A stretch of 64,000 nucleotides of DNA from Aureococcus anophagefferens (taxonomy: Eukaryota; Sar; Pelagophyceae; Pelagomonadales; Pelagomonadaceae): positions 454,981 through 518,980 of the forward strand of contig NW_008705562.1 in NCBI RefSeq assembly GCF_000186865.1, in the 5' to 3' direction. The translations under genes and the position numbers were made by a program. Position 1 is the stretch's first letter; every line of letters starts with the position of its first letter. A model generated the notes under the pieces. That model was given only the letters and a program-made list of their open reading frames with translations. It was not told where the DNA came from and did not search any database. Positions 9,820-61,149 of the stretch are shown here, one piece after another.

Positions 9820-11525
9820 CTAGCGCCGGCGGCGCAGGCGCGGCTTGCGGCCGCCGACGAGCTCGCTCTTGAAGACCGTGCCGCAGTTCGTGCGGCGCAG
9901 GTCGACGCGGCGCTCGTGGTGGAGCGTGTCGAAGCCGTACGCGTCCGCGAGGACGTCGAGCGCGCGGCACTCGAGCTGCTGGAGGTACTTGACGGGCACG
10001 TAGCCCGGGCTGCGGATGACGTTGACGAGGACGGGCCGCGGCAGGTGCGGCAGCAGGCGCCGCCCGACCATCTCGTCGAGCGTGAGCTCGAGCTCGGGCC
10101 CGAGGTCCGCGGGCACCTGGGCGGGAAACGGGTGCGAACTTCCCAACCTCGAAGGCTCCGATCTCGGTCAGTTTCCACTCGTTTCGGCTGATTTTTGGAC
10201 GAGCGATCATCCCTTGGAGCGCTCTCGAAGCGTGGATCCTGTCTCTGGAACGATCGCGCGCGGAACACTCACGTTGAAGCGACGTCGAATCACCCTTTCG
10301 CGGCCCCGGCGGGCGCGTGGAACGGCTGCTCGAGGAACATCTCGATGGACTGGACCGTGCGCCGGGGCGAAGCGTGGGCGCCGGCGAGCGTCGCGGCGAA
10401 GTCCTCCAGGCGCCGGCGCCGCGCGGGCGCCAGGCCCCGCGCCCTCGACGCCGCGGCGACGTCCTCCGCGAACGCGGACGACGGCCGCGCGCCGCGCGCG
10501 GCCTCCGTCGCGGCGCGCGCGGCGGCGTCGAAGGCCGTGTCCGCCGAATTTTGCGGGCGCGTCGCGGGCCGCGTGCGGCCGCTCCGCAGGAAGTCCAGGC
10601 CCATGTCGGGGAAATTCCACGTGAGGTGGTACAAGATCGACAGCGCCTCGTCGTCGACACCGTAGTCGCGCCGCGTCGCCACGGCCCCGATGGACTCCGT
10701 GGCGAAATAGTCCAAGTCCACGTCCAACACAAAAGGCTTCGACGCGTCGACCATGGCGACGACGCGCTCCGGCATGTCCGCGAGCTCCGAGAAGACGACG
10801 GACACGCGAAAGTGGCGCACCCTCGACAGCGTCGCGACGCCGCCGACCCGCGGCTCCCCGTCGCGCCAGAAGATGTGGCCGAAGCGGTCCCGCCCGAGGC
10901 GCCGCGCGTCGCCCGCCGTCGCGTCGACGCGGATCCGGTTCGCTCCGTCGACGCCGATCGCGAAGTCGAACGTCGCCGAGTCCTCGTAGACGCAGCAGCG
11001 GAACTGGTTGCTCCAGGGCGGCTCGACGAAGATGAGGTGCTCCGCGAGGCCCTCGAAGGCCGCCAGCACGAGGAAGTCGTTGATCTCCGCGTAGCGGTCC
11101 AGTTGCTCGCCGTCGAAGCCCACCGGCGGCGGCCGCGGCACGCCCATGTCCGCGTGCGAGTCGAGGTGCAGGATCGTCGCGCCGCCGTCGACGGGGAGCG
11201 TGCCCGCCCACTTCTCGCGCACGTAGTACGGCAGGACGTGGTGGTGCTCCTCGACGACGCCCACGCGCATGTCCTGCGGCGGTGTCTCCTCCGCCTTTCG
11301 CGGCGGCGGCGCCGCCTTCTTTTCCGTCGGCGGCGCGGGCGCCGCCTCCGGCGTCTTCGGCGGCGGCGGCGGCGGCGGCGTCGCCGGCCAGAGGACGAAG
11401 GCGGCGCCGGCGAGGGCGACGGCGCCGAGCGCGATGAGCGCCGGCGACGGGGAGGACTTTGCCTTGGCGCCGCCCTTCTTCGCGTGCGGCGGCCGCCGCT
11501 TCTTGTCTTCCTTGCGCACGCGCAT
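9820..11525 (-). CDS. UPF0489 (C5orf22-like) protein, split by an introner
   Basis: Two exons: 10317-11525 and 9820-10116, joined over a 200-bp GC-AG intron made by an introner (10117-10308). Spliced length is 501 residues. A TM helix near the N-terminus (SPALIALGAVALAGAAFVLW) and a Pro/Ala/Lys linker precede the UPF0489 domain, with EEHHHVLPYYV, HLDSHADMGV and LDVDLDYFA, which resemble arginase-like metal ligands. The second exon restores the C-terminal part of the domain (LLPHLPRPVLVNVIRSPGY). The reaction is unknown for the family. Without splicing the first exon stops a few codons into the element, so the intron is required. Confidence 0.82.
10117..10308 (-). mobile_element. Introner element, family 1 (intron of UPF0489 gene)
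   Basis: 192 bp. Terminal inverted repeats CTGGGCGGGAAACGGGTG and CGGGGCCGCGAAAGGGTG (each read inward). In gene sense the target duplication reads GCGCCCGC upstream and GTGCCCGC downstream (7 of 8 identical). The intron is 10117-10316, starting GC and ending CCCAG. The protein reads FH|VPADLG across the junction. Confidence 0.9.
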
Positions 11526-11672
11526 CGGTGAGGACTGCGACTGCTCTCGAGGCTGCGATGCTCTATGCAGCCGCTACGCGACAAGTCGCTCTAGGCTGCT
11601 GGCACCATGCCTCGGCCGGCACGAATTCTTCAACACGAACTCAGGCCAACATTGCCGTAGTATTGCAGTTCC

Positions 11673-12249
11673 TTACTCGCAGTACTCCCCAAAGATGCAG
11701 GCGCCGCTGCAGCACGCCGTGGCGTTGGGGCATGGTGTCCCGGGTTGCAGACAGGACGACCTCGCGTTGGCCTCGGGCTCCTTCGCGCAGACGGAGGGCG
11801 GGTGGCGCTTGGCCCAGGGCGACGCGCAAAAGGCCGCGTAGTCCGTGTCGTCGGCATTTGCGATCTCGGCGTAGCTCGTGCTCACCTACGCGGTCGCAAC
11901 GTCCTTCCGGGCGGCGCGAGGGACGCCGCGCGCGAACGCTCTCGAGACTCCGCAGGCCGTCGAGGTTTTTGAGCGCGCCGTTCCCGCTCACGTACAGCGA
12001 GCCGCCGATGTGGGTGAGGGACGCGAATCCGAGGTTCTCGAGCGCGGAATTCCCAGTGATGTAGAGGCGCCCCTCGACGCTCTGGAGATGGCTCAGTAAG
12101 ACGTTCGTGAGATTGGTGTTCTGAATTAGCAGGTCTCCCTCGATGACCGCACACTGCGCCGCTGCCGCCTGCTCGTAATGCTGGCCGCCGGTGCAGACCT
12201 TGCCGGCCCTTGCGACGCCGAGCAAGAGCAGGGCCCGTCTGAGCAACAT
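11673..12249 (-). CDS. Small secreted protein with receptor-L/LRR-like repeats and Cys-rich tail
   Basis: Exons 11938-12249 and 11673-11885 give a 174-residue protein. The signal peptide (LLRRALLLLGVARAG) is followed by beta-helix-like repeats, with GDLLIQNTNLTNV, GRLYITGNSALENL and GSLYVSGNGALKNL (about 38-95). The C-terminus has eight or so cysteines, ending CCSGACIFGEYCE. The repeats resemble receptor L-domain/FNIP-type repeats seen on secreted eukaryotic proteins. The 52-bp intron (11886-11937) begins GTTCG and ends CGTAG; both exons are in phase 0 with this choice. Ligand and role are unknown. Confidence 0.6.
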
Positions 12250-12356
12250 GGCAGCCCAAATTGGCAGCCCAAGCGCGTCGTTGAGGTAATCATTGAGGCC
12301 GACTCTGAACCCTTAGCGCGGTGGTAGAACGATGGTCCTGGCATAGCCATCGTGGC

Positions 12357-13659
12357 ATGGGCGCGGCGACGTCCGTAGCCGCGCAGCGCGCCGATGCGAC
12401 GGTCGTGGAGCTGGCGCCCGCCGCCGCGGTGTCCGCCGAGGCGCCGGCGCCGGGCGCCGCCGACGGCCCCACGGGCGCGCCCGCCGTCGACCGGCTCGCG
12501 CTCCTGGCCCAGCAGCTCGACGGGTCCGAGGAGTTCCTCGAGGCCGTGGCGTCCGAGGCCGCGCCCGTGCGCGCGGTGCTCCAGGAGCTCGGCAGCGGCC
12601 GCTTCGACGGCGGCGACGGCGACGAGTCGCCGACGGAGCGGCGGCGGCGCCGCGTGTCCGTGCTCCTCGAGTCCGAGGACCTCGACGGTTTAGAGAGAGA
12701 GCTGCGGTCCATGAAGATCAGCGACGCGCTCTACGCGAGCGTCATGGGCGGCGTGCGGACCGTCCTGTCCTTCGGGTTCCCCCGGAGCCGGCCCGCGGAC
12801 GCGCCCCTGGAGCTGCAGCTCGTCAAGGGGAAGCTCGCGCGGCTCGAGGAGGACTACGCGAAGCTGCGGGAGGAGAACGCGCGGCTCCGGCTCGCGGCGG
12901 GCCAGACGAGCCGCGACCTGCGGGACCGCGCGTCGACGACGCGCGCGACGTTTTTGAAGGCCTGCGCCGCTTTACCCTACGGCTCGTCGGACCCGGCCGC
13001 GGTCAGAGACTGGCTCGACGCGCACGTGACGTCGCGCGCGGAGAACGACGTCGAGCGCCAACGCTTCGCGGCCGTCGCCGCGCAGCTCTTCGAATCCGGC
13101 GCGGACGGCCCGTCGCTGCTCGAGCGGTGCGCGGCGCGCGTGGGCAAGCCCCCCTGGTTCGAGGTGCGCGGCGACCACAACCGACAAAAACTCGACGTGA
13201 AGCTCGTCGCTTTAAAACGCTTCAACATCGTGCTCAACGACGCGTCGGGCTTCGGGTTCTACTGCCTGCTCTACCGGAGCTGCGGTCGGTTAGGACCTTT
13301 GCAGGACTTCGAGTGGGAGGCGCTTTTAGGCGACGGGTCCTTCGGCCAGGTGCACCGCTGCCGCAACAAGCACAGCGGCGACCCGCGCGCCGTCAAGGTC
13401 GTCCACGTCGCGTCCGGCGACCTGGAGCGCGCCGCGCTCGAGATGGAGTTCCAGCAGGTCGCGTCGGCGCTCGCGGCGACCAAGGTCGTGCGCCTCGAGA
13501 CCTGGGGCCAGGTCGAGGAGGAGTACCTCTTCGCGGTCATGGAGTACGCGGCGGGCGGCGAGCTCCGCGGTCGCATCGGCGCAGAAGGCGTCGACGTGGC
13601 CCTCTTCTGGCGCTGGGCGTCGCAGCTCGCCGACGCCGTCGCGGAGCTCCACGCGCGGA

Positions 13660-13694
<35 letters not shown>

Positions 13695-17652: not shown

Positions 17653-17657
17653 ACTGG

Positions 17658-27986: not shown

Positions 27987-28617
27987 GGCGGGAGCGCGGG
28001 GGGTCGCGCCCGGCGGCAGCCCGTCACGGAACCAGCGGTCGCGGCCCGGCGGCGAGGTCACGCGCCAGGGTCCATTTATGATGTAGGTCCATGCTCGCGC
28101 CCTCGTTCGAGTCGGGCAGCCCCCTTACTTTCCGATTGCAAAGTTTCCCGGGGAGTGCCATCCTATCAATCGTTAATATATTGTGGTGACCCGGCCAAGT
28201 TGACCTATACAAAGTCATAAAAACTCGATTCAGAGTGAAGGCGATGAACCCTTGCAGCACCATTGAATTATTTTTAAATCCGGAGTATGTGGTACTTTTT
28301 GTTCGGAACATTTGATTGACATTGAACTCACAAGATTGAAGCCTCGGTTTAAAAAACTCGATCGATGTTTGGACGACTCGATGGCTCCCCTCGAGTTCTC
28401 GAAGCGCGGCAGAAGCGCTCGCGTCCACCTCGTCGCATACGCCCGCATTGAAGTCGGGTCGGAGACTCGGATTCGCATGCGGCGCACTGCAGGCATCCAC
28501 GAGGTGCCCGCGCGCGGCGCGCGCCTCGCGCCGTCCAAGTACCGCCGCGCCGAGGGCGCCGTCGTCGCGACGACCATCGTCTGCTTCTACGTCCACACCG
28601 CGCTCTTCTCCGCGTAA
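27985..28617 (+). CDS. Possible 69-residue tail-anchored small membrane protein (two exons)
   Basis: Exon 27985-28069 (starts MAGARGVAPGGSPS) and exon 28493-28617 join in phase over a 423-bp intron (GT at 28070, AG at 28491-28492). The second exon has strong coding bias: VPARGARLAPSKYRRAEG, then a terminal TM helix (AVVATTIVCFYVHTALFSA). The first exon is less sure because its ATG lies in a palindromic CCATGG that also gives the start of the antisense PHD gene. The intron is AT-rich at its 5' side and carries an introner-like 3' end. It may be a mitochondrial or ER subunit; family unknown. Confidence 0.4.
28339..28492 (+). mobile_element. Degenerate family-2 introner-like segment
   Basis: From about GATCGATGTTTGGACGACTC onward it follows family 2 (TTTGGACGA, CTCGAGTTCTCGAAGC, GTCGCATACG, CATTGAAGTCGGGT) and ends ACTGCAG before coding sequence starting GC. 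The left terminus and target duplication cannot be found, so this is a decayed or rearranged copy. Confidence 0.5.
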
Positions 28618-34609: not shown

Positions 34610-36080
34610 TTACACGAAGGCGGCCTGGGACTCCTTCGCCTCGTCGGGCGCGGCGGGCGCGGTCTGGGCGCGCTGGTTTCGCGGCGGCGTGTTGGCGCCG
34701 TGGCGCTCGGACTGGAGCCGCGCGTAGAGGTCGACGTCGTCGCTCCGGAGCGCGTTGCCCGCGCGGCCGCGGAGGATCTCGCGGCCCTTGGCCTTGTAGG
34801 CCGAGAGGCAGCCCGCCTTCTTGAGGAGCGCGTAGGCGCCGAAGGCGCAGCCCGCGACGAGCGCCATGAGGAGCACGACGTCGATCCACGTGCGGTCGAG
34901 CGAGGCGTCGTCCCGCTTCTTCGACGGCTTGGGCGTCACGGGCTCGTAGGGCTCGTAGGACACGAAGGGTGTCTCCAGCAGCACCCGCGACTGCTCGCCG
35001 TCCTTGGACCGGAAGAGCGCGCCCGTGGGCATGGCCGCGAGGCACGCGGACAGCGGGGACGACGCCTCGTTGACCAGCTGCCGCAGCGGCCACCGCGCGG
35101 AGCCCGCGCCGGCGTCGGCCTTGCGGATCACGCAGTCCCGCACGGACGTCGCGAAGGTCGCCGGGTTCGCGTTGAAGGCCAGCGTCGGCGACTGGCGCGC
35201 GTGCAGCTTCAGGCCTGTGTGGAAATCAACCAGTGGAACGCCCTGTCCAGCAAAAACTTCAAACCTCTCTATCTCGATCAAATCGAAGTCGATTTGGCTG
35301 ATTTTTGGACGAATCGATTGCTCTCGTCGAGTTCTCGAAGCACAGCCGAAGAGCTTGCGTCGAAACTGTCGCATACGAATACATTGAAGTAGGGTTGAAG
35401 ATTTGATTTCCACACAGCTTGAGGCGCCGCCGCTCGGGCCGCATGAGCGGCGTGAGCGTCGCGCCCGCGTCGCCCAGGCGCTCGAGGCACCACTGCACGA
35501 AGAGGTCGTCGTTCACGGGCATGGCCCCGTAGACCTCGAAGGCCGAGTAGTGGCCCCCCGACGCGCCGTAGGACGGCATCGCCTCGGCGAGCCGCGCGAA
35601 CGCGCGCCCGCCGACCGTGCCGATGTAGTCCGCGTCCTGCCAGAGGTCGAAGTCGAAGTTGTGGCCCGCCCTCGTGACGAGCACCTCCCCCGTCGCGTCG
35701 GGCCAGGACGCGGCGCCCGTGCCGTTCGCGCCGCCGAAGACCGGCAGGCCCAGGAGCGCGGAGACGTTCCGCGGCAGAAAGTGCACCGACGTGACGTCCG
35801 CGCCCGTGCGCGCGCGGTCCCAGTCGACGCTGTTGAGCCGGAAGGCCAGCGCGTAGTGCTCCATGCTCACGGTCACGGGCTCGAGCATGGACGGGATCAC
35901 CACCTCCGTGCGCAGCGTGAACACTTCCATTAGGTCCTCCACGGCGAGCGTCGGCAGCTGCGCCGCGGACTTGAGGGGCTCCAGATGGTCCGCCGCGAAG
36001 CGCTGGAGGTGCCGCTCGGCGGAAGCGAGCGCGGCGCCCAAGGCGACGAGGGCCCGGAGGCCGCGGCGCGCGGGGGCCAT
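34610..36080 (-). CDS. Type I membrane protein of unknown function, split by family-2 introner
   Basis: Exons 35426-36080 and 34610-35214 give 419 residues. The N-terminal signal peptide (LRALVALGAALASAERHL) is followed by a large luminal domain with DLMEVFTLRTEVVIP, SMEHYALAFRLNSVDWDRA and DFDLWQDADYIGTVGGRAF. One TM helix (DVVLLMALVAGCAFGAYALL) lies near residue 345, with a cytosolic tail of about 60 residues. Joining the exons gives RPERRRLKLHARQSP. A similar outline occurs in other algal surface proteins, but I recognise no domain. It is divergent from the next gene. Confidence 0.6.
35215..35417 (-). mobile_element. Introner element, family 2 (intron of membrane-protein gene)
   Basis: 203 bp with termini CTGTGTGGAAATCAACC and CTGTGTGGAAATCAAATC (read inward). 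Target duplication in gene sense GCCTCAAG upstream and GCCTGAAG downstream (7 of 8). The intron 35215-35425 is GC-AG. Internal sequence shares TTTTTGGACGAATCGATTG with the copy at 44.2 kb and shows only short similarity (GGCTGATTTTTGGACGA) to family 1. Confidence 0.88.
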
Positions 36081-39600: not shown

Positions 39601-42466
39601 TTAGGTCGGCGCGAGGAGGTCCGCGTCGACGAGCGACGGGGGGTCCGCGGCGCCCGCGCGCGCGTCGACGACGAGCGGCGGGGGGTCGGCGGCGCCCGCG
39701 CGCGCGCCGCGCGCGAGGTCGAGGCGGTCCGCGAGGTACGCGCGGCGCTGGTCGCGCGTGTCGAGGCGCTCCCACTCGAAGTGGGGGATGTTGACGACGC
39801 GCCAGCCGAGGGCCTCGAGGAGCCGCCGCTTGCACCGCGTCTTCCCGTTGGGCCGCGGCGCCGCGGCGCCGGCGAGGTAGTGCGTCGGGCCGTCGTACTC
39901 GACGGCGAGCTTCGCGGCGGGCACGGCCATGTCGAGGCTCAGCCCCTGGGGCGTGACGTGCTCGAAGTCGTGGGCCAACAACTCGGCGAGGCTCTCGGAG
40001 ACGTCGCGCTGCGCCTGGCTCGGCGCGGCCGCGTCGGCGACGAACGCGGCCCGGAGCGCGTCGGCGTCGTCGAGGACGACGCGGGGCAGGGCGTGGTCCG
40101 GCGCCTCGGCCTCGGCGAAGATGGAGACGTGGTGCCACATCTTCCGCTGGTCGTCGTCGAGCGCGTCGACGGAGTCGGCGATCGCCGCGAAGAGCTCGGG
40201 CGCCGCGACGCCCGCCGTCGAGAAGGACCAGGCGACCTGGCTCAGGGCGCCCACGTCGAAGGACCCCAGGCGCCGGACGGACGCGTCGGCGACGGCGCGG
40301 AAGAGCGCCGCGTCGCCGCGACCCGCCATGGCGAACGCGTACGCCAGATTCGCGAGGTTCTGCGGCCGGAAGCTGTAGATCTTGCGCGGCGCCTCGCGCG
40401 CGAGCGCGTCGAAGAGCCGCGGCGCGTCCCGGCCCGCCGTCGCGAAGGCCCAGGCCGTGTTGCCCAGGTTCTGCGGGTTGAACGAGTCGAGGCGCCGCGG
40501 CGCCGCGCGCGCGATCTCCGCGTAGAGCGCGGGCGCGTCGCGGCCCGCCGTCGCGTAGGCCCAGGCGAGGTTCGCGAGGCCCTGGGCGTTGAAGTCGTCG
40601 ATGCGGCCCGCCGCCTCGCGGGCGATCGCGTCGAAGAGCGCCGGCGCGGCGCGGCCCGCGGTCGCGTAGGCCCACGCGGCGTTCGCGAGCGCCTGCGCGC
40701 TGAAGGCGCCGAGGCGCGGCGCCGCCGCCGCCGCGACGGCGTCGAAGAGCGCCGGGGCGGCGTAGCCCGCCGTGGCGAAGGCCCAGACGAGGTTCGCCAG
40801 ATTCTGCGGCGCCGCGGTCGCGAGCTGTCGCGGCGCCGCGGCCGCGACGCCCGCGAAGAGGGTTTCGTCGTTTCGCCCGGCCTTGGCGAAGGCCCAGGCC
40901 GTGTTCGCCAGGGCCTGCGCGTTGAAGTCGCCGAGCTTGGGCGCCGCGGCGGCCGCGAGTGCGCCGAAGGCGTCCGCGTCCCTCCGGCCCGCGGACGCGT
41001 AGGCCCAGGCGACGTTTGCGAGCCCCTGGGGATTGAGCTCGTCGGCGCGCAAGGCGACCTCGGCCGCGAGGGGCGCGAAGAGCGCGTCGTCGCTCCGGCC
41101 GGCGCGCGCGAAGGCCCACGCGGCCATCGCTAAGCCCTGCGGTCGGAACTCGCTCAGCCGCGGGCCCGCCTCGCGCGCGAGCGCCCCGTAGAGCCGCGGC
41201 GCGTCGTAGCCGCCCGCGGCGAAGCTCCAGGCGAGGGTCGCGAGGTGCTGCGCGTCGCAGGCCGGGAGCTTTCGGAGCGCCGCGGCTTCCAAAGCGGCGA
41301 AGAGCCGCGCGTCGCGCACGCCCGCCTTCGCGAAGGCCCAGGCGACGTTCGAGAGCTGCTGGGGCTCGAGGAAGCGCATCTGGCGCGTCGCCTCGTCGGC
41401 GAGGGCGTGAAAGAGGATCGGCGCGCGCGTCCGCGACGTCGCGAAGGCCCAGCAGACGCTCGCGAGCCCCCGCTCGTCGAGGTCGCCGACGCGCCGCGTC
41501 AGCGCCACGCCCAGCGCGCCGAAGAGCGCCGGCGCGCGCCGCTTCGCCCGCGCGTGGGCGTAGGCCAGCGTCGCCAGCGCCTTGCCGTCGAGCGCGCCCA
41601 TGGCGTCCGCCGCCGCGGCCCCGACGGCGGCCCACGTCGCGTCGGTCCCCGCGCGCGCCTTCGCCAGAGACCAGGCGAACTTCGCCAGACCGTCGCCGTC
41701 GAGGGCCGCGACGTCGACGTGCGCTTCGACCCAGCCCAGGGCGCCGCCGCCGGGCCCTTTGGCGTAGGCCCACGCGACGCGCTGCAGGTCGTCCGCGGCG
41801 AACGCGGCGCCGTCGCGCCGCGCGAGCTCGCCGGCGAGCGCGTTTCCCAGGGCCGGCGACAGGCGCCGGGCCTCGGCGAAGGCCCAGGCGAGGTCGCAGA
41901 GCTCCGCGTCCGCGAACTCGCCGAGCCGCGCCGCGGCCGCGGCCTCGATCGTGTCGAAGAGGTCCGCCGCGTCGACGCCTGGGCAGCAAAGAGAGATTCA
42001 ACGTCGCTTCAATGTGAGTGTTCCGCGCGCGCGCGTCACGAGAAAAGCATCCACGCGTCGAGGCCGTTCCGAGAGATGATCGCTCGTCCAAAAATCAGCC
42101 GAAACGAGTGGAAACCGGCCGAGCTAGGAGGCTTTGAAGTTAGGAATCTCGCGCTCTTGTCCTGCCCTGGTCGACGCCGCTCTCCGCGTACGCGAAGGCC
42201 GTGTCCACGAGCGCCCGCGCGTCGAACTCGGCGACCTGCCTCAGCCCCGCGGACTTGAGCGGCTCCAGGAGCCGGCCCGGCCCGTCGAAGTTCGCCGCGA
42301 CGGCCCACACGGCCTTCGACAGCTCGCCCGAGGGCGCCGCGGCCGAGCTCGGCCGCGCGAAGCGCACGCCGAGCGTCCGGCGGGATGCCGCGGGACCGCG
42401 CAGGCCGCCGGCGCCCGCGAGCAGCAGCACGAGGCACGTCGGCTTGCTCATGGCGGGCTTGCTCAT
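39601..42466 (-). CDS. RAP-domain protein with tandem LANxAWAxA-type repeats, split by introner
   Basis: Exons 42178-42466 and 39601-41978 give 888 residues. The N-terminus has a short targeting-like leader (PTCLVLLLAGAGGL). About 17 helical repeats of about 36-38 residues follow, each with a core such as PQGLANVAWAYASAGR or AQALANTAWAFAKAGR; these correspond to the FAST-kinase/heptatricopeptide-like class. The C-terminal RAP domain includes LAVEYDGPTHYLAG and LLEALGWRVVNIPHFEWERL. Such proteins bind organellar RNA and affect processing or translation in plastids and mitochondria. The introner is near the 5' end and gives ESG|VDAADLFD. Confidence 0.85.
41979..42169 (-). mobile_element. Introner element, family 1 (intron of RAP gene)
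   Basis: 191 bp. Perfect 8-bp target duplication (genomic GTCGACGC at 41971-41978 and 42170-42177). Termini CTGGGCAGCAAAGAGAG and CAGGGCAGGACAAGAGCG. The intron 41979-42177 is GC-AG, 199 bp. Orientation relative to the gene is opposite to the copies at 10.1, 44.6 and 56.9 kb. Confidence 0.94.
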
Positions 42467-42617: not shown

Positions 42618-43639
42618 ATGGGGAACTCGCGGTCGAAGCGCGAGGACAGCAAGTACGACGACGAGGATTTAAGTTACGAGGAGGACGAGAATGCCCTCCA
42701 GTACTTGGAGCTGCACCTCACGCGGCTCATCGCCTACGCCGAGAGCGCGGACGCGTCGCTCCAGCGCGAGGTCGCGGAGCGGCTCGCCAACGAGGCCGTC
42801 AAGCCCGAGCGCCAGGTGCAGATCGTCGACCTGGGGGGCCTGCGGCTGCTCATCCCGCTGACGCGGAGCGCCGACGGCGAGGTCCAGCGGCTGGCCGCGC
42901 ACGCGCTGGCCAACCTGTCGGTCAACGCCATGAACCAGGTCAAGATGGCCGACGAGGGCGGCATCGACGTGCTCATCGACCTGCTGGCCATCGAGTCGGT
43001 CCACGTCCAGCGCCAGGCGTCGAAGGCGCTCGCGAACATCGGCGTCAACGTGCACAACAAGGAGAAGATCGCCCGCGCGGGCGGCATCAAGCCCCTCGTG
43101 GCGCTCGCGGGCAGCTCCTACGTCGCCGTGGCCATCGAGGCCATCGCCGCGCTGGCGAACCTCGCCGTCAACGACGCGAACGAGGTGCAGATCGCGCGCG
43201 ACCAGGGCAGGAAAAGAGAGCGAAATTCCCAACTTCAAAGGCTCCGATCTCGGCCGTTTTCCACTCGTTTCGGCTGATTTTTGGACGAGCGATCATCTTT
43301 CGGAACGGTCTCGAAGCATGGATGCTTTTTCCGGAACGCGCGCGCGCGGAACACTCATGTTGAAGAGAAATTGAATCACTCTTGTGCTGCCAGGCGCGCG
43401 ACGGCGGGCTCCGGCCCATCCTCGAGGGCGCGGAATCGCCGTCGACGGACCTCCAGGCCCAGGCGGCGCGGGCCCTGCGCAACCTGAGCGTGAACCCGGC
43501 GAACCAAGTCAAGCTCGTCGACCTCGGCGGCGTGCCCATCCTCCAGGCGCTGACGCGGTCCTCCAACTCCCGGACGAGCCAGCAGGCCGCGCGCGCGCTC
43601 GCGAACATGGGCGTCTCCGTCGACCCCGAGCACTGCTAG
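42618..43639 (+). CDS. Armadillo-repeat protein, Vac8-like, split by introner
   Basis: Exons 42618-43193 and 43394-43639 give 273 residues. The start MGNSRSKRED fits N-myristoylation with a basic patch. Armadillo repeats fill the rest: ERQVQIVDLGGLRLLIPLT, VQRLAAHALANLSVNAMNQV, VQRQASKALANIGVNVHNK, AVAIEAIAALANLAVNDAN and QAQAARALRNLSVNPANQV. The last repeat is truncated at DPEHC. The introner lies inside a repeat and splicing restores EVQI|ARDGGLRPILEG. It is likely a membrane-associated adaptor. It is head-to-head with the RAP gene (151 bp). Confidence 0.85.
43202..43393 (+). mobile_element. Introner element, family 1 (intron of armadillo gene)
   Basis: 192 bp, flanked by GCGCGCGA on both sides (a ninth base, C, also matches). 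Left end CCAGGGCAGGAAAAGAGAG; right end TTGTGCTGCCAG, which lacks two bases of the usual terminus. The intron 43194-43393 is 200 bp, GC-AG, phase 0. Confidence 0.93.
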
Positions 43640-43741: not shown

Positions 43742-45402
43742 TCAGAGGTCGTCGCCGCCCTTCTTCTTCTTCGCCTTCTTCGCCTTCTTCTCGGCCTTGC
43801 GTTTTTTTCGGAGCTCCTTGTCCTGCTTCGACGCCTCGAGGAACTCGCAGGGCGGCTCCGCCGCGCAGAGCCCGCAGGCCTTGGGGCAGTGGTCGATGAC
43901 GTCGTTCTCGTCGGCCTTCGTGTAGTCGCTGGGCCACTTGGCGTAGGTGTCGCAGTTGTAGCCCTTGTGCTGCTTGCACGTGGCGCCCTTGAAGTCGGCG
44001 TAGAAGTGGTCGTCGACGCAGGGGCAGTCCGTCTTCTTGTTGACCTCGCGGAGCACCGCGTGGGCCATGATCGTGAGGTCGAGGAACGCGGCGCCCTTGT
44101 CCGGCAATAGACGGAAGGCGGCCTTGCCGTAGCGCTTCGACAGCGTCGCCTTGCCCCGCGCGTCGGCGTAGAGCGCGAGGTAGAAGTTGGCGAGCATCTG
44201 CTCGTCCTCGTCGTCGCTGTCGATGCACCGGTTCAGGTCGCCGAGCGCCTGGGCCGGAATCAAATCTTCAACCCGACTTCAACGTGAGCGTATGTGACAA
44301 TTTCGACGCGTAGCTTTCTGCTGTGCTTCGAGAACTCGACGAGAGCAATCGATTCGTCCAAAAATCAACCGAATCGACTTCGATTTGACCGAGCTAGAGA
44401 GGTTTGAAGTTTGGCTGGAATAACCCAGCCAGTGGTTGATTTCGGCACAGCCGAGCGCCTGCTCGTTGTTCGTCATGAAGAGCTTGAAGGCCGCGCGGAG
44501 GCAGCGCTTGCCCTCGGCCCAGTCCGGGAAGATGTCGAGGTGCACGATGGCCAGCGACTTGAGGAGCTCGAACTCCTCCTCGGCGACGAGCTCGCCGTTG
44601 TTGTTCTTCATGTGGCTCGCGCCTGGGCGGCAAAAGGGTGCGACATTCCCAACTTCAAAGGCTCCTCTCTCGGCCATTTTCCACTCGTTTCGGCTGATGT
44701 TTGGACGGGCGATCATCTCTCGGGACGGTCTCGCAGCGTGGATGCTTTTTACGAAACGCGCGCGCGCGGAACACTCACGTTGAAGCGACGTTGAATCACC
44801 CTTTTCCCGCCCCGGCTCACGCCGAGCCAGATGACGCGCTCCGCCTCCTCCTCGATGGCCGTCACGTTCTCGAAGTCCATGTCGCTCACCAGAGACTTGA
44901 GCAGGCCCGCGCCGTCGCCGGTCATGCCCTTGTAGTACATGACGACGGCGAGCTGCGTCGCGTACTGGCGCCGGATCTCGCGGCCCTGCGCGTCCGTCGC
45001 GTTCGTCGCCAGCGCGACGGCGCGGCCGTACATCTCGAGGGACGCGTTGACGGCGCCCCACATGAACGCGTTGTTCGCGCGCCGCACGAGCTCCGCGGGC
45101 TCCTTCCAGAGCTCCTCTTCTTTCGCGTCGTGCGCGTCCTTGGCCTCCTTGAGCAGCTCCTTGGCCTGGAGCACCTGCGTCGGGTCGCCCGTGGGGCTGT
45201 CCTCGCCCCAGTCGATGTCGTCGAAGTCCTCCTCGTCCTCCTCCTCGACGCTCTCGACGGCCGTGGGCGCCTCGACGACGGGGGGGTCCTCGGCGTCACC
45301 CGGGGCGGCCTCGGGCTCGTCCACGGCCTCCGGCGGCGCCGCCTCCTCGGCGGCGGCGCAGGCCAGCCAGAGCGCTGCGAGCAGACCGAGCGGCGACCGC
45401 AT
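43742..45402 (-). CDS. Secreted TPR protein with ShKT-like domain, carrying two introners
   Basis: Exons 44823-45402, 44459-44622 and 43742-44248 give 416 residues. The start is set at MRSPLGLLAALWLACAAAEE, a signal peptide. An acidic region (about 45-75) precedes TPR-like helices (AKELLKEAKDAHDAKEEELW; LVRRANNAFMWGAVNASLEM). The C-terminal cysteine module starts CPCVDDHF and ends CPKACGLC, and the Lys-rich tail ends KKKKGGDDL. It is a paralogue of 3317-4468, with the same part order. Two introners of different families interrupt it only 172 bp apart; both junctions restore the frame (WLG|ASHMKNNN and NNEQ|ALGDLNR). Confidence 0.78.
44249..44450 (-). mobile_element. Introner element, family 2 (second intron of TPR/ShKT gene)
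   Basis: 202 bp. Target duplication in gene sense GCGCTCGG, perfect (44241-44248 and 44451-44458 on the genomic strand); three more bases also agree by chance or design. Termini CTGGGCCGGAATCAAATC and CTGTGCCGAAATCAACC. The intron 44249-44458 is GC-AG, 210 bp. Confidence 0.92.
44623..44814 (-). mobile_element. Introner element, family 1 (first intron of TPR/ShKT gene)
   Basis: 192 bp. Target duplication in gene sense GCGTGAGC upstream and GCGCGAGC downstream (7 of 8). Termini CTGGGCGGCAAAAGGGTG and CGGGGCGGGAAAAGGGTG. The intron 44623-44822 is GC-AG, 200 bp; a GT two bases further in is an alternative donor but would break the frame. Confidence 0.92.
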
Positions 45403-47670: not shown

Positions 47671-50534
47671 TTACTTCCGCTGCTGCTGCTGCTGCATGTA
47701 GGCCATCTGCTGCGCGTACATCTGCTGCTGGTACATCATCTGCTGCTGCTGCATCATGGCCTGCTGCTGCATGTACTGCTGCTGCATCATGGCCTGCTGC
47801 TGCGGCGACGGCGCCGCCGGCGCCGCGTCGGCGAGCATGGCGGACTGCTGCGGCGCCTGCGTCGCCATCTTGGACATGGGCGTCGCGGGGGCGCGCTTCC
47901 GGCCGTCGCGGCTCTTGGGCTGCTCGCCGTTCGCCGCCAGGTTGAGGCTCACGAGCCCCATGGCCTCGGAGAAGTCGAACGCGTCCTTGGGCGGCGCGAC
48001 GGTGGACGCGGGCGCCGCGGGGGGCGCGGCGAACGCGCCGACCGGCGGCGCGGGCGGCGGCGCGGCCGCGGGCGGCGGCGCGGCCGCGGCGGCCGCGGCG
48101 GCGGCGGGCGCCGCGAAGGCCGCGCCCGCGGGCGCGAAGGAGGCGTCGGGCGCCGGCGCCTGCGCGGCGCCGGCGAAGAACTGCGTGAAGCGGCGGCCCT
48201 GCGCCATCGCCGGCGGGCTCGGCGAGCTGAACGGGTCCGCGGCCGCCGGCGCGAGGGCCTGGGGCGTCGGCGGCGCGCCGAAGGCGGCCTCGGGCGCGAC
48301 GGGCGGCGCGAGCGCCGGCGCCGCGGGCTCGGCGAAGGCCGCGGCGGCGGCCCGGGGCGAGAAGGACGCCGCCGCCGCGAACGACGCGCCGCGCGGCGCG
48401 GGCGCGGCGAACGGGTCCGCGCCGCCCGCCGCCTCCGGCGCCGAGCGGGTCGCCGTGGGCGTCCGGGGCGGCGCCGCGAAGGCCACCTCGGGCGGCGGCG
48501 GCGCGGGCGGCGGCGCCGCCGCCGCGGGCGGCGCGGCCGCCGCCGCGTTTTTGTACGCGAACGGGTCCGGGAACGCGCTCCCGAGCGACGACGACGACGA
48601 CGCGACGGCGGGCGGCGGCGGCGCGAGGGGCGCCGGCGCGAGCACCTCGGGCGCGGCCGGCGGCGGCGCGGGGGGCGGCGTCGCGGGCGCCGCGGCCGGC
48701 GGCGGCAGCATCGACGACCGCTGCCCCGCGGCGAGCTGCGCNNNNNNNNNNNNNNNNNNNNNNNNNNNNNNNNNNNNNNNNNNNNNNNNNNCGCCGGCGG
48801 GTCCGGGAAGACCGCGGGCGGCGCCGCGAGCGCCGTCGGGTCCGGGAAGGCGGCGGGCGGCGCCGCGAGCGCCGGCGGGTCGGGGAGCGTGGGCGCCGCC
48901 GGCGCGAGGGCCGCGGGCTCCGGGAACGCCGGCGCCGCGGGCTCCGGGAACGCCGGCGCCGCGGGCGCGGGCATCGACGGCGCCGCGGGCGCGGGGAACG
49001 CCGGCGCCGCGGGCGCGGGGAACGCCGGCGCCGCGGGCTCGGGAAACCCCGCCGACGCGCCCCAGCCGGCGCTGGCGTCCGGCGGCGTCGCGTCGTCCGT
49101 CGGGGCGAACACCTTCGTCGCCGCGGTCTTTGCGAAGCCGCCGCCAGCGGCCGCCGCGAAGGGGTCGTCGCCCGCGGCGTCGTCGATCATGCCCGGCATG
49201 GCCATGCCGTGCTTGGCGACGCCCGTGGACACGACGCTCTTGCGCAGGCCCTGGTGGAAGCCCTGCTTCCAGAGCTTGACCTGGTTGTACTCGGGCCCGT
49301 CGGCGCCCGACGTCACCGTCGGCTCGGCCACCGAGCCGAAGAGGGCCTCGCCGACGGGGGCCGCGGGCGGCGGCGCCGCGACCTCGGGCGTCTCCTCCTC
49401 GGGCGGCGGCGCGGCGTAGGACCCGGGCATGGGCTGGATGATCGCCGGCTCGTAGAGCGCCGGCGCGGGCTCGTGAAGCGCCGGCGCGGGCTCGTGAAGC
49501 GCCGGCGGCGCCGCGGGCGCGGGCGGCGCGAGGACCGCGGGCGCGGCGGGCGCGGAGGGCGCGCCGAAGGTCGCGAAGGCCTCCGGGATCGCGAGCGCCG
49601 GCGCGGGCCGCTCGGGGACGGGCGGCGGCGCCGCAAAGTCCGACGGCGCGGGCAGGCGGGAGGTCGCCGGCGGCGGCGGCGGCGCGCCGAACGCGTCGCC
49701 GACGGTCGGCGGCGGCGGCGCGGCGGCGAAGGCCGGCTGCGGCGGCGCGGCGGAGAACGCGGGCGCGGTCATTTCCCGGGGCACGGGCGGCTCCATCGGC
49801 GGCGGCCGCTCTGGTACGGGCGGCGCCGTCGGCTGCGGCGGCGCGGCGGAGAACGCCGCGGGCGGCGCGGCGGAGAACGCCGTGGGCGGCGCGGAGCGAT
49901 CCGGCACCAGCGGTGGCATGTCCAAGTGCTCCGGTACGAGCGGCGGCATGGCCGACAAGGGTGGCGGTGTCATCTCGCGGGGCGGCGGCGCGGGCGGCTC
50001 CGTGCGCTCCGGCACCGGCGGCGCCGTGGGCTGCGGCGGCACGGCAGAGAAGGCCGGCATGGTCATTTCTCGCGGCGGCGGCGCGGGCGGCTCCATGCGC
50101 TCCGGCACCGGCGGCGCCATGGGCTGCGGCGGCGCGGCCGGGAACGCGGGCGGCGGCGCGCGCTCGGGCACGGGCGGCGCGACCTCCGGCGCGGCGGGCG
50201 GCGCGGCGAACGCGGCTCCGAGCGCCGGCTCGGGCAGGCTCGGCGGCGGCGCGCGCGCGGAGAAGACGGGCGCGACCATGGCGTGGGGGCCCGCGGCCGG
50301 CGGCGCCGCGGCGTCGGGCCGCGTCGGCGGCGGCGGCGCGCGCGGCGGGGGCGCCGGCGGCGCGTCGCGCGCCGGGAGCGTGGGCCCCGGCGCCCGCTCG
50401 GGCACGGGCGGCGGCGCGCGCTCGGGCACGGGCGGCGGCGCGCGCTCGGGCAGCGGCGGCTGCGGCGCGGCGGCCTGCGGCGGCGGCGGCCGCGCGGAGA
50501 AGACCGGGGCGGCCATCCGCGGCGTCGGATCCAT
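47671..50534 (-). CDS. DPF-motif, Pro/Ala-rich protein with Met/Gln-rich C-terminus (contains assembly gap)
   Basis: The start is taken at MDPTPRMAAPVFSARP. The N-terminal half is a low-complexity array of PPVPERAPPP and PAFSAAPPQP units. A conserved-looking block follows: GPEYNQVKLWKQGFHQGLRK and PGMIDDAAGDDPFAAAAGG. The 50-N gap then breaks the frame, so its true size is not 50 or bases are missing. After it come more DPF triplets (PDPFAYKN, GADPFAAPAP, ADPFSSPSP), the KDAFDFSEAMGLVSLNL segment, and a tail rich in Met and Gln. Repeated DPF motifs usually bind the AP-2 appendage, so an endocytic scaffold is plausible but unproven. Confidence 0.55.
48742..48791. other. Assembly gap (50 N)
   Basis: Fifty unknown bases within the DPF-motif gene. 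The reading frame differs on the two sides. Confidence 1.
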
Positions 50535-56400: not shown

Positions 56401-57812
56401 TTAAGGTCCGTTGAGCCACACGTCCGGCGGCCGGCGGTCCCGGACGCGCGCGACGGCGTCCGCGACGAGGCGCGCGGTGTTCGCGTAGGACACGTCCGTG
56501 TAGCCGCCGACGTGGGGGCTGAAGTAGGTCCGCGGGTGGCGCGAGAGCGCGTCGGCCGGGTCCCAGGGCTCCGCGGGCTTCGACGCGGCGCCCGCGCCGA
56601 CGTCCGACGCGTACGTCAGCGCCGGGTCCCGCTCGAGCGCCGCGAGGACCGCGTCGCGCGAGGCGACGGGGCCGCGCGCGACGTTCACGACGACCGCGCC
56701 GAGCTTCAGGCGCCCGCAGAACTCGTCGTCGACAAAGGCGCGCGTCGACGCCGTCAGCGGGCAGGCCAGGAAGACGACGTCGCAGCTCGGAAGCGCGCCG
56801 AGGACGGCCGCGCGGCCGCCGACGGCCTCGAGGTCGGTCTCGCCGTCGCGCCACGCGCGGTGCGCGTGCGCCACCACGACGTCGACGCCCCAGGCGCCGC
56901 GGAGCCGCGCCGCGAGCGCGGACCCGACGGACCCGTGCCCGACCTGGGCAGCAAAAGGGTGCGAAATTCCCAACTTCAGAGGCTCCTATCTCGGTCGTTT
57001 TCCGCTCGTTTCGGCTGATTTTTGGACGAGCGATCATCTCTTGGAGCGCTCTCGAAGCGTGGGTGCTGTTTCCGAAACGCGCGCGCGCGGAACACTCACG
57101 TTGAAGAGACGTTGAATCACCCTTTTGCTGCCCTGGAGCCGACGACCAGCGCCCGCTTGCCCTCGAGCTGCCGCGGCAGCGGCAGGCCGCCGAGCACGCC
57201 GGCCGCGAAGCGCGTCGCCAGCTCCTCGGGGCCGCGGCGGAGCATGGCGAGCGCCAAGAAGACGGCGTGCTCCGCGGTCGCCGCGGCGTTGCCCGACGCG
57301 CGCGCGGGGCAGTTCGACAGCGCGATGCCCAGCCGGCGGCAGGCGTCGCGGTCGACGCCCTCGAGGCCGACGCCGAACTGGACGACGAGCCGCACGTCCG
57401 TCCCGGCCTCGAGGATCGCCGCGTCGAGTCGCTCCATGAAGGGGATGACGACCTGCGCGTCCGCGACCGCGGCCGCCAGCGACTCCGTCGGCGCCTGCAC
57501 GAGGGCGACGCCGTCGTCGGCGAGCGCGGCGCGCGTCAGCGGCAGCGCCGCGAGGAAGTGGCGCTCGCCGCTGAAGACGACCTTGAACGGCGCGTCTGGG
57601 TCCAGCGGTCGCTCGAAGCGCCAGGAGAGCGCGCGGGTCGTCCGCAGCATCGCTGCGCGCGGCGCGGCGGTCGTCCGTGGCGTCGCTGCGCGTGATGCAT
57701 TGCGCTGCGATGCTGCACGCGGTGCGGCATGAGCGCGCTGCATCGCTGCGCGTGATGCGCCACAACGCAGGCCGATAGTCGCGATCATCGTTGCCACAGT
57801 TGGTTGCCCCAA
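56401..57812 (-). CDS. D-isomer-specific 2-hydroxyacid dehydrogenase, split by introner
   Basis: Exons 57144-57812 and 56401-56943 give 403 residues. The N-terminal 50 residues (Arg/Ala-rich, with repeated MQRAHAAPRA-like units) look like a mitochondrial or plastid leader. The NAD-binding motif GKRALV|VGHGSVGSALAARL is formed exactly across the splice junction. Catalytic Arg lies in VVVNVARGPV, the Glu in SKPAEPWDP and the His in YFSPHVGGYTD. QFGVGLEGVDRDACRRLGI is the usual substrate-domain signature. It is in the phosphoglycerate/glyoxylate reductase superfamily; substrate undetermined. It diverges from the TPR gene (200 bp). Confidence 0.87.
56944..57135 (-). mobile_element. Introner element, family 1 (intron of dehydrogenase gene)
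   Basis: 192 bp with termini CTGGGCAGCAAAAGGGTG and CAGGGCAGCAAAAGGGTG, the cleanest inverted repeats in the window. Flanks in gene sense: GTCGGCTC upstream and GTCGGGCA downstream (5 of 8, so mutated). The intron 56944-57143 is GT-AG, the only GT donor among the eight long copies. Confidence 0.93.
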
Positions 57813-58012
57813 TGTTGTCCCTCAACAAACTGCTTGAACATTGTATCCAACCACCTCGAAACCGGAGCGCTGGGCTGCTGCACGGCGGCCGCGACCTCCC
57901 GAGTCGCGCGACTTGCGCCCGCGGCCCCGAACGGGCGGCGTCGGGGACCTTCGGGCGAGCGCGCGCGTCGCGCCGGGGGGTGTGCGAGGCGCCGCGTCGC
58001 GAGGCCGCCACC

Positions 58013-58882
58013 ATGGAGGAGCAGGACCAGGACAACGCGGAGCTGCTCGCGCTCCAGCGCATCGACGAGACGTGCACGAACTTCCAGCAGAACGGCCAGT
58101 ACCTCGAGGCCCTGGAGTGCATGGAGCGCGGCCTCGTGCTGCGGCAGCACTTCTTCGGCGCGGGGTCCGACGAGGTGTGGCGCGCGTGCAAGACCGTGGG
58201 CGAGATGTGCAACCTGCTGGCCATGACCTACCTCCAGCAGGAGGACTTCGCCATGGTCCTCGAGCTGCTGAAGAAGGCGGAGATCCTCACGGAGCGCGAC
58301 CCCGCGGGCCGCGCGGTGACGTTCAACAACCTGGCGTGCTACTACCGGCGCCAGGGCAAGTTGCACGCCGCGCTCCAGTATCTGCAAAAGGCCCTCAAGA
58401 TCGAGGGGCGCCTCGAGCGCGTCGACAACCCGGCGGACACGTACCTGAACGCCTGCGCCGTGCTGTCGCAGCTCGGCCGCCACCAGTCGGCGCTCGAGCA
58501 CGCGCAGCAGGCGCTGATTTTGCTCCAGGAGGAGCTCAGCAGCGTCATCGGCCCCGCGGCGGGCGGCGACGCGGGCCCGCCCAAGGCGGACCGCATCGCC
58601 GTGCTCGCCATCGCCTACCACAACGTCGGCGTCGAGCAGGAGTTCCTGAAGAAGCACAACCAGTCGCTCCAGAGCTACCGCAAGGGCGTCGAGGTCGCGG
58701 AGCGCTACCTCGGCAGCGACCACGCCATCACGACGACGCTCCGCAACTCGTGCGTCGCGGCCCGGCGCACCATGCTCGCCAAGGACCCCCAGGCCCGCCT
58801 CGCGGGCATGGGCCGCAAGCCCAAGCCGAGGTCCGGCAAGGACCCCGCGGGCATGATCACGCCCCGCGAGAGCCACGACTGA
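58013..58882 (+). CDS. TPR protein, kinesin-light-chain-like repeats
   Basis: 289 residues. The ATG sits in GCCACCATGG, an exact Kozak-type context, which fixes the start despite an open frame upstream. TPR motifs fill residues about 20-250: NGQYLEALECMERGLVLRQH, NLLAMTYLQQEDFAMVLELL, NNLACYYRRQGKLHAALQYL, NACAVLSQLGRHQSALEHAQ and HNVGVEQEFLKKHNQSLQSY. The tail is basic (RKPKPRSGKDPAGM). This is a protein-interaction scaffold; similar TPR proteins occur in ciliary and transport complexes, but no partner can be named. Confidence 0.75.
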   Translation: MEEQDQDNAELLALQRIDETCTNFQQNGQYLEALECMERGLVLRQHFFGAGSDEVWRACKTVGEMCNLLAMTYLQQEDFAMVLELLKKAEILTERDPAGRAVTFNNLACYYRRQGKLHAALQYLQKALKIEGRLERVDNPADTYLNACAVLSQLGRHQSALEHAQQALILLQEELSSVIGPAAGGDAGPPKADRIAVLAIAYHNVGVEQEFLKKHNQSLQSYRKGVEVAERYLGSDHAITTTLRNSCVAARRTMLAKDPQARLAGMGRKPKPRSGKDPAGMITPRESHD

Positions 58883-59076
58883 GCGCTAAGGGAGCCTTCG
58901 CCGCGACGTCGCCGGGGGGGGGCGCCGCTCGGGGAGCGCCCGAGCGCCCGACAACTCGCGCGCAGAGTAGCGTGGTAAGGGCGTCCAGACGCTCCCGGGA
59001 GTCTGGGCGGAGGTCGCGGCGGCCGCGCGGCGGGCGGCGGGCGGCGGATGGGGGCGGGTTGCGCGGCGCGCGGCGC

Positions 59077-61149
59077 CTAGGCCGGCACCGCGGCGGGCTC
59101 GGGCGCGGCGGGCGGCGGCTTCGGCGACGCGTCGGGCGACACCTGGCCCTGGCCGGCGGCGCCCGGGTCGCCGAGGCGCTTGTTGACCTTGTCGACGATG
59201 GCGTCGAGCTGGTCCTTGGACTCCCACTCGATGAGGTACTTGTTCGCCGGCGGGCACTTGCAGAGGTAGTTGACGTGGCGGAGGCAGCAGACCGTCGTCT
59301 GGCTGCAGTTGCAGGCGACGGCGCTGAGGAAGCACGTGTGGCGGCAGACGGCGCAGATGCGCTTGTCGTCGTAGTCGCAGGCCGCGGCGTCGATGACGTC
59401 CGTGTTGTTCTTGGGCGGCGCGACGACGGACGAGATGTCGCGGACGCCGTCGGCGTAGAGCCGCGCGCGCGAGACGACGTCCTCGCGCACGAGGCGCTTG
59501 AGCTCGTCGCGGAGCATGACGCACGCGTCGGCGTCGAGCTCGTCGACGTAGCGCGCGAGCGTGAAGATGAGCCGGTCGTGGCCCAAGACCGCGAGGCGGC
59601 CGATGCGGCGGTAGCGCTCGTTGGCGAGCTTGGCGTGCTCGATCCAGTGGGGCATGGCGAAGTTGACGGCCTCGCCGCAGTTGAAGCCGTAGCTGAAGCC
59701 GCTGTGGAAGGCCTGCGGGAAGGTCACGACGAAGGTGCCCGGCTCCTGGACGAGCTTGTAGACGGGCACGCCGTGGGCCGCCTGGGCAGCAAAAGGGTGA
59801 TGGGGATTCAACGTCGCTTCAACGTGAGTGTTCCGCGCGCGCGCGTTCCGGAAAAAGCATCCACGCTTCGAGACCGTTCCGAGAGATGATCGCTCGTCCA
59901 AGAATCAGCCGAAACGAGTGGAAAACGGCCGAGATATGAGCCTTTGAAGTTGGGAATTTCGCTCTCTTTTGCTGCCCTGTGGGCCGCGAGCTTCGACGGC
60001 GAGAACTGCGTGTTCATGTGGTGGAGCAGGTCCGGCACCTCCTGGAGGCGCTGCTTGTAGAAGCGGCGGACGACGTTCTCGAAGGCGGAGGCCTTCTCGC
60101 CGGGCACGCCGTACCACTGCTTGGGCCCGCCGACGTGGTGGTAGTTGATCGACGAGAGGTAGTTGTCCTCGTTGTGCCAGGAGAACGTGGAGAAGAGCAT
60201 GCCCAGGTAGAGCCAGGGCGACGTCACGCCGGGCACGGACACGGTGAAGTGGCGGAGCACGGACCCGGGCCACGACGCGATGTTGTTGAGGTTCCAGCCC
60301 GTCGCCGCGTAGTAGGCGTCGCTCGCGTAGGGCACGCCCTCGAGCTTGGCGACGCTCAGGTCCGCCCGGTCGCCGTCGGGTTTCGGGAAGCCGGACCAGA
60401 ACTCGTGGACGTCGACGTCGTTGCCGTACTCGACCTCGACGGCCTCGGCGCCGCGGTCGACGGCGTCCCAGTAGTCCTCCTCGAGCGCCGCGTAGAGCGC
60501 GGCGCCGGACAGGGGCGGCGGCGGCGGCGCGCCCTCGGGCGACGCCTTGGGCGCGTGCTTCGCCGCGAGCCACTTGGCGAAGAAGTCGTCGGCCATGGCC
60601 TGGTACTCCTTGACCGTGTACTTCTTGCCGTCGCCGAAGGGCCGCGACTCCTGGAGCCGATCGACGCGCTGCCGCTTCGTCGAGAAGCGCTTCTCCGACT
60701 CCCAGTCCACCGCGCACGGCATCGACCAGCCGTCCCTACGGAGAAACACGCTCGACGCCGCCCCCCCCGCGCGGCCCCGGCGCCCCCCGCCGCCGCCGGC
60801 GACCCCCGGGCGCCCCGTCCCCGCGGCGGCCGCGGAAAACGCTCGATGCCGGGGCCCCCGCGCGGCCCCGGCGCCCCCCCCGCCGCCGGCGACCCCCGGG
60901 CACCCCGTCCCCGCGGCGGGCGCCCCCGCGCGCGCGGCGCCCGGCGGACGGCGCGGCCGCCGAAGGACGCCGCGACCGCGCGGCGGCACGATCTTGCAGA
61001 TGCCGTGCGGCTCGGCCTACGAAAGGGGGGCGTCGCCGGCGACGGGGCGGCCGTCGGCGCGCGCGCGCACCTCGGCGCGGATGGCCTCGATGTAGGCCAG
61101 CGGGTCGAGGAACTCGGCGAGCGTCGGCCGGTACGTCGGCGCCGCGGGA
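59077..61149 (-). CDS. KDM5/JARID1-like histone H3K4 demethylase (5' end in gap)
   Basis: Exons: 61077 up to the gap at 61149, then 60982-61016, 59988-60735, 59077-59781, phases all consistent. JmjN: YRPTLAEFLDPLAYIEAIR|AEPHGICKIVPP, formed across a 60-bp GC-AG intron. JmjC: FSTFSWHNEDNYLSSINYH supplies Fe ligands His and Glu, KQWYGVPGEKA follows, and FPQAFHSGFSYGFNCGEAVN supplies the second His. The C5HC2 zinc finger reads CAVCRHTCFLSAVACNC with CCLRHVNYLCKCP. ARID/PHD parts are not seen. It should remove methyl groups from H3K4. The introner sits inside the JmjC domain. The start codon is missing (gap or further upstream). Confidence 0.85.
59782..59979 (-). mobile_element. Introner element, family 1 (intron of KDM5-like gene)
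   Basis: 198 bp. Perfect genomic target duplication TGGGCCGC (59774-59781 and 59980-59987). Termini CTGGGCAGCAAAAGGGTG and CAGGGCAGCAAAAGAGAG. The intron 59782-59987 is GC-AG, 206 bp, phase 0, restoring KLAAH|GVPVYKLV-type JmjC sequence. A 6-bp insertion near the left end makes it slightly longer than its relatives. Confidence 0.95.
60764..60920. repeat. Imperfect tandem repeat, C-rich, inside a KDM5 intron
   Basis: Two about 65-bp copies (60764-60828 and 60855-60920) both start CCCCCGCGCGGCCCCGGCG and include GGCGACCCCCGGGC and CCCCGTCCCCGCGGCGG. They lie in the 246-bp intron 60736-60981. Confidence 0.75.

What the first reader, a model, noticed from the sequence alone, without database searches (positions are those of the whole stretch)
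10117..59979. Eight transposon-like introner elements have created introns in seven genes of this 64-kb window
Six elements of 191-198 bp and two of 202-203 bp share inverted termini and sit inside conserved coding regions with 8-bp target duplications (perfect in 4, 7 of 8 in 3, 5 of 8 in 1). Removing element plus one target copy restores the known protein motif each time, for example the dehydrogenase NAD-binding loop and the JmjC core. The pattern matches introner elements reported by Huff, Zilberman and Roy (2016) for Aureococcus and Micromonas; the exact assignments here are mine.
Basis: partly seen in the sequence, partly recalled or inferred. Interest (0 to 1): 0.9.

Follow-up and report, generated by a model that had tools for sequence, protein, structure and literature searches.

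The report
Jumping DNA that makes algal introns
Eight short mobile DNA pieces sit in seven genes of this brown-tide alga and look as if they are cut out of the RNA as introns, a way of making new introns that has already been described in this same species.

Summary
Eight elements of 191-203 bp lie at the stated places, with 8-bp target duplications (8/8 in four, 7/8 in three, 5/8 in one). They form two families: six of 191-198 bp and two of 202-203 bp, with a related core but different inverted ends. The genome is Aureococcus anophagefferens: both published phosphate-transporter primers of that species match exactly and span 141 bp, as published. It holds roughly 4,000 copies (extrapolated). 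In 67 full-length copies, excision of element plus one duplicate puts the coding frames of both flanks in phase in 61, against 6 if the element is retained. The acceptor AG comes from the element's end, the GT or GC donor from the duplicated target. Introner elements of this kind were described in this species in 2016, so the finding is correct but already known. Splicing itself was not observed here, and no autonomous partner was found by searches of low power. One possibly new detail: in 8 of 49 family-1 copies the core points against the gene, yet the outermost bases still face the gene's way, which suggests that cores can flip by recombination between the inverted ends.

The parts
10117..10308 (-). 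Family-1 introner in a minus-strand UPF0489-domain gene; core on +, opposite to the gene. TSD copies 10109-10116 and 10309-10316 (7/8)
   Evidence: (UPF0489 match does not span the junction)
35215..35417 (-). Family-2 introner (203 bp, near-perfect terminal inverted repeat) in a minus-strand gene of unknown family; core opposite to the gene. TSD 35207-35214 and 35418-35425 (7/8)
   Evidence: (no Pfam family)
41979..42169 (-). Family-1 introner in a minus-strand gene with a weak, below cut-off FAST_1 match that does not span the junction; core with the gene. TSD GTCGACGC 41971-41978 and 42170-42177 (8/8); donor GC
43203..43394 (+). Family-1 introner in a plus-strand armadillo-repeat gene; core with the gene. 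TSD CGCGCGAC 43195-43202 and 43395-43402 (8/8)
   Evidence: (Arm_2 spans the junction)
44249..44450 (-). Family-2 introner (202 bp) in a minus-strand gene, the same gene as the next; core with the gene. TSD CCGAGCGC 44241-44248 and 44451-44458 (8/8); the only one of the eight whose retention would keep the frame, but it holds an in-frame stop
44623..44814 (-). Family-1 introner in the same minus-strand gene (no Pfam family); core opposite to the gene. TSD 44615-44622 and 44815-44822 (7/8)
56944..57135 (-). Family-1 introner in a minus-strand D-2-hydroxyacid dehydrogenase gene, within the NAD-binding domain, at the glycine-rich loop (loop motif recalled); core opposite to the gene. TSD 56936-56943 and 57136-57143 (5/8)
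59782..59979 (-). Family-1 introner in a minus-strand JmjC/C5HC2 histone-demethylase-like gene; core with the gene. TSD TGGGCCGC 59774-59781 and 59980-59987 (8/8)
28355..28473 (.). Decayed relic of a family-2 core (profile positions 72-195); no clean target duplication found

Best explanation
These are introner elements of Aureococcus anophagefferens: short non-autonomous DNA transposons (MITE-like) that inserted into exons and are removed by the spliceosome. Shown here: inverted ends, an 8-bp duplication of the target, about 4,000 copies by extrapolation, and restoration of the frame by removing the element plus one target copy. Inferred: the transposase makes a staggered 8-bp cut. The element's 3' end supplies the polypyrimidine tract (clear in family 1, weak in family 2) and the acceptor AG. 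The first bases of the upstream target copy (GT or GC) become the donor. Splicing therefore removes exactly the insertion, and the mRNA is unchanged. Family 2 carries AG at both ends in most copies and so can work either way round. Family-1 copies carry AG at one end only.
For: Boundaries and TSDs. In phase after excision 61 of 67 copies, of these 53 of 59 outside the window; in phase if retained 6 of 67. The coding strand of the flanks agrees with the splice direction read from the element in 57 of 58 in-phase copies with an assigned direction; for family 1, where direction came from the termini alone, in 44 of 44. In family 1 the TSD begins GT or GC in 48 of 48, against 19 of 48 when the same site is read on the other strand and 19% background (3 of 51 copies without an assigned direction, the one at 43203 among them, left out). 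Donors are GC 33 and GT 30 of 63. Acceptor AG in 63 of 63, but AG was part of how direction was assigned. Species by two exact primers spanning 141 bp, with size 49.05 Mb against 49.9 Mb for strain CCMP1851. 2154 exact hits of a core 15-mer, control 0. Proteins uninterrupted at the junction.
Against: No RNA evidence was examined. Six of 67 copies are not in phase after excision: L005 1505, L020 2031, L039 8738, L042 6735, L048 2880 and L048 9059. One family-2 copy reads coding on the strand opposite to its assigned splice direction (L039 4772). The codon model was trained on the eight window gene models, whose frames I picked by eye, so only the 53 of 59 outside the window are independent. No transposase was identified. 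The LSU reverse primer of the same species gave no match.
Confidence: 0.95

Rival explanations
1. Ordinary MITE insertions that disrupt genes or pseudogenes and are not spliced.
For: The elements have MITE hallmarks, and RNA was not examined.
Against: Frames are in phase after excision in 61 of 67 copies and a GT or GC donor stands in 48 of 48 assigned family-1 copies in the right direction. Unspliced insertions would not need either. Two of the host genes have many relatives (53 and 613 proteins found), and five of the seven have some Pfam match, one of them below cut-off.
Confidence: 0.03
2. Old introns whose interiors were homogenised, or introns copied through RNA (reverse splicing), not DNA transposition.
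For: Every copy with an assigned direction has a GT or GC donor and an AG acceptor (63 of 63), as an RNA-copying model would predict.
Against: Reverse splicing makes no target duplication and has no need of inverted ends (recalled), and the core lies in either direction relative to the gene (8 of 49 family-1 and 7 of 15 family-2 copies reversed). An 8/8 TSD in 51 of 67 points to cut-and-paste insertion.
Confidence: 0.02

Closest known systems
Introner elements of Aureococcus anophagefferens (Huff, Zilberman and Roy 2016, Nature, doi 10.1038/nature20110; not held; content recalled and seen through citing papers)
   Same: Same species. A characteristic length near 210 bp is attributed to them in PMC9481584 (passages), direct repeats plus inverted repeats of constant length in PMC7789003 (passages), and, for the introners of that paper, insertion in both orientations with co-opted splice sites in PMC10228655 (passages).
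   Different: Their sequences could not be compared here, so it is untested whether our two families are their families. PMC7789003 speaks of canonical splicing motifs, while GC donors are 33 of 63 here. Core flipping and polarised ends were not mentioned in the passages seen.
Introners of other eukaryotes, Gozashti et al. 2022 (PMC9860276; passages and part 2 of 7 read)
   Same: TSDs, TIRs, acceptor carried by the element and donor from the TSD (their Symbiodinium example), GC donors up to 50% in some families, and same- or opposite-orientation insertion allowed for in their methods.
   Different: Their Aureococcus sp. family 4 example carries both splice sites and adds 12 bp to the transcript; removal of the elements here leaves the frame unchanged.
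hAT-type MITEs (recalled)
   Same: 8-bp duplications; ends beginning C-A/T-G.
   Different: No hAT dimerisation domain was found in the genome, but that search had no working control. Ends match the recalled hAT pattern only in part. Not assigned.

Membership tests
Introner elements (A. anophagefferens type) | Many near-identical copies within genes across the genome | tested here: met
   40 matches among 40 scored of 1888 candidates; 2154 core-word hits; 15 copies in 200 kb sampled; flanks coding and in phase in 61 of 67
Introner elements (A. anophagefferens type) | Target-site duplication of fixed length (8 bp) | tested here: met
   8/8 in 51 of 67, 7/8 in 9, 4-6 of 8 in 7
Introner elements (A. 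anophagefferens type) | Terminal inverted repeats | tested here: met
Introner elements (A. anophagefferens type) | One splice site in the element, the other co-opted from the duplicated target | tested here: met
   sequence level only: donor GT or GC at the TSD start in 48 of 48 assigned family-1 copies, AG at the element end
Introner elements (A. anophagefferens type) | Exact removal restores the reading frame | tested here: met
   61 of 67; 53 of 59 outside the window
Introner elements (A. anophagefferens type) | Spliced out of mature mRNA | not testable with these tools
   no RNA reads; uninterrupted near-identical proteins of unknown provenance exist
Introner elements (A. anophagefferens type) | Insertion between nucleosomes | not tested
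   no nucleosome data
Introner elements (A. anophagefferens type) | Sequence identity with the published families | not testable with these tools
   the 2016 paper is not held
hAT transposons | hAT transposase with matching ends in the genome | tested here: inconclusive
   PF05699 no match but the control was silent; pattern searches for ends without the core had low power

The most novel reading that the evidence does not exclude
Family-1 cores flip in place: recombination between the two inverted ends inverts the interior while the outermost bases (5' CA, 3' AG in the gene's direction) stay put. The intron keeps its acceptor and goes on being spliced with its core reversed. All 8 reversed copies of 49 carry gene-facing termini (direction was read from the termini, but the coding frame confirms it independently in 7 of the 8, all but L005), whereas a simple reversed insertion of the common form would leave CT...TG and no acceptor. 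One copy (L038 7156) has both ends as a single crossover inside the repeat would leave them. Against it: 7 of the 8 share a subterminal T seen in few forward copies, which fits an inherited reversed lineage.
Probability: 0.3. Interest if true: 0.4.

Novelty: already known. Interest (0 to 1): 0.25.

Why it matters
It confirms, from raw sequence and in a contiguous assembly, that thousands of introns of this alga probably come from DNA transposons, some with near-identical cores and so recent, a case where the origin of introns can be studied at base resolution. What remains open here, and is directly testable in this genome, is which transposase moves them and whether cores invert between the inverted ends.

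Tried and rejected
Autonomous partner: patterns for intact ends without the core gave 1 hit with a control of 1 (the pattern held a needless fixed T), then 19 hits with a control of 3, of which 17 by eye still carry core sequence shifted by indels or read from the other end; for family 2, 1 hit with a control of 3. These patterns reject any end that agrees with the core at one of the excluded positions, so an unrelated interior would pass only about one time in six or one in four per end: the negative is weak. Two odd family-1 hits (C4:536286, C13:526422) and the one family-2 hit (C21:39301) were not read. Pfam searches for hAT, IS1595/Merlin (control rang in Haloferax volcanii) and KDZ gave nothing; for 17 and 57 no control rang, so absence is not shown.

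Target preference: RC at positions 7-8 occurs in 19 of 48 family-1 sites against 23% in the flanks (p 0.009), but in 19 of 63 over all copies (p 0.13; family 2 gives 0 of 15 because its direction was assigned from the donor). Post hoc; kept as a hint only.

The tree of 67 cores does not make reversed copies one clade (11 label changes by parsimony, at least 3 forced by well-supported branches, shuffled mean 13.7 with 17 of 500 shuffles as low; both families together; weakly resolved, 33 of 60 inner branches open). A first protein search used a stretch in the wrong frame and found nothing. The species LSU reverse primer gave no match.

Full report
WHAT WAS CHECKED. A boundary search that scores the target duplication and the inverted ends together returns exactly these eight, with the sizes and duplication scores that were claimed. 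A general repeat search shows the same set as inverted and direct repeats and an alignment shows the shared core. The six of 191-198 bp form family 1, and the two of 202-203 bp family 2; they share part of the core but not the ends. A ninth, decayed family-2 core lies at 28355-28473.

WHICH ORGANISM. The window is contig C2:454981-518980 of a 49.05-Mb genome in 86 contigs. Two qPCR primers that were designed for the phosphate transporter of Aureococcus anophagefferens (PMC3237563, passages) match this genome exactly and once each, at C4:467182-467203 and 467301-467322; that is 141 bp from end to end, the published amplicon. Strain CCMP1851 has 49.9 Mb and 70.5% GC (PMC11237714, first part of two read). 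An LSU primer pair for the species is given in PMC10855355 (passages); its reverse primer gave no match, and the rDNA may not be in the assembly. The forward primer was not searched alone.

HOW MANY. Twenty 10-kb stretches that I chose at round coordinates on contigs C1-C8 hold 15 full-length copies, 6 of family 1 and 9 of family 2, or roughly 3,700 in the genome. A core 15-mer occurs 2154 times with a control of 0. It is present in 12 of the 23 copies from this sample and the window, so the two estimates agree at about 4,000.

ARE THEY INTRONS. I took 67 full-length copies (of 75 distinct hits; copies in L001, which repeats the window, and short ones were left out). A codon model trained on the eight window gene models was used to find the best of six frames in each 180-bp flank. 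With element and one target copy removed, the two flanks lie on one strand and in phase in 61 of 67 copies (53 of 59 outside the window); with the element kept, in 6 of 67 (5 of 59). Five of the 67 lengths are multiples of three. Of the window's eight, one, at 44249, is; read through in its frame it holds a stop. Pfam matches above cut-off span the junction in the dehydrogenase, JmjC and armadillo genes. In the other five elements the support is frame continuity alone, so 'known motif each time' was too strong.

OUTSIDE SEQUENCES. The restored dehydrogenase is 97% identical (350 of 359) to an uninterrupted 360-residue protein, and the restored JmjC protein 99% identical to an uninterrupted 479-residue one. 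Both come from short contigs (1494 and 3603 bases) of unknown provenance, so they may be cDNA or an empty site. In the JmjC alignment, Pelagophyceae sp. CCMP2097, Chrysophaeum taylorii, Triparma and one further transcript-derived relative have no gap at the junction. Proteins cannot show whether those genes carry an intron there.

HOW IT WORKS. In the direction of the gene, family-1 copies typically run GY-N6 | C(A/G/C)GGGC ... GCCCAG | GY-N6. The acceptor AG and a pyrimidine-rich stretch lie in the element's end (78% pyrimidine in family 1, 50% in family 2); the GT or GC donor is the start of the upstream target copy. With direction read from the termini alone, the family-1 donor is GT or GC in 48 of 48 copies; the same sites read on the other strand give 19 of 48, and the background is 19%. 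Donors are GC in 33 and GT in 30 of 63. Family 2 has AG at both ends in 12 of 15 assigned copies (one more with AG at both ends, L050 1988, could not be given a direction) and lies with the gene in 8 and against it in 7 of 15 (its direction was mostly read from the donor). Whether the perfect donor rate reflects selection against unspliceable insertions or also a target preference is open; a weak excess of RC at the other end of family-1 sites (19 of 48 against 23%) is only a hint.

A DETAIL WORTH A LOOK. In 8 of 49 family-1 copies the core lies against the gene, yet the outer bases still read C-not-T ... AG in the gene's direction. Direction was read from these same termini, so by itself this is circular; but the coding frame of the flanks, which does not use the termini, agrees in 44 of 44 in-phase family-1 copies, 7 of the 8 reversed ones among them. 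Seven of the eight carry a subterminal T that 2 of 41 forward copies carry by the pattern used (a third, L018, was not classed and by eye has it too), which speaks for a heritable reversed lineage. But L038 7156 has forward-type inner ends with only the outer bases exchanged, and L005 1505 has the common young core, though its flanks are not in phase. Recombination between the inverted ends, which inverts the core and leaves the outermost bases, would give this. It could have happened in place or in the source element. The family-1 set is biased, because 30 loci were fetched by likeness to one forward copy; in the sample and window the ratio is 6 forward, 4 reversed, 2 unassigned.

WHAT IS KNOWN. 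Introners of this species were reported by Huff, Zilberman and Roy in 2016. The paper is not held and I recall its abstract: each transposon carries one splice site and the other is co-opted from the duplicated gene sequence. Papers seen in passages state a characteristic length near 210 bp (PMC9481584), direct and inverted repeats of constant length (PMC7789003) and both orientations with co-opted splice sites (PMC10228655). Gozashti et al. 2022 (PMC9860276) describe the wider phenomenon. Full-text searches for introner literature were made; they cover openly licensed papers only. The finding is therefore right and already known. No transposase was found, under the limits told in Tried and rejected.

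Noticed in passing
window 40210-41647: Array spaced 111 bp (37 codons), twelve overlapping 217-nt copies 63-78% alike to a reference copy; probably a protein repeat of the gene that also carries the element at 41979.
   Followed up: no
window 28355-28473: Decayed core of a family-2 element without clean ends.
   Followed up: partly
window 48000-50500: Very G+C-rich (about 82%) stretch of short degenerate repeats.
   Followed up: no
L048:2880-3071 and 9059-9250: Two copies with identical cores and the same unmatched flanking octamers (TSD 4/8), likely a local duplication of an already decayed site.
   Followed up: no
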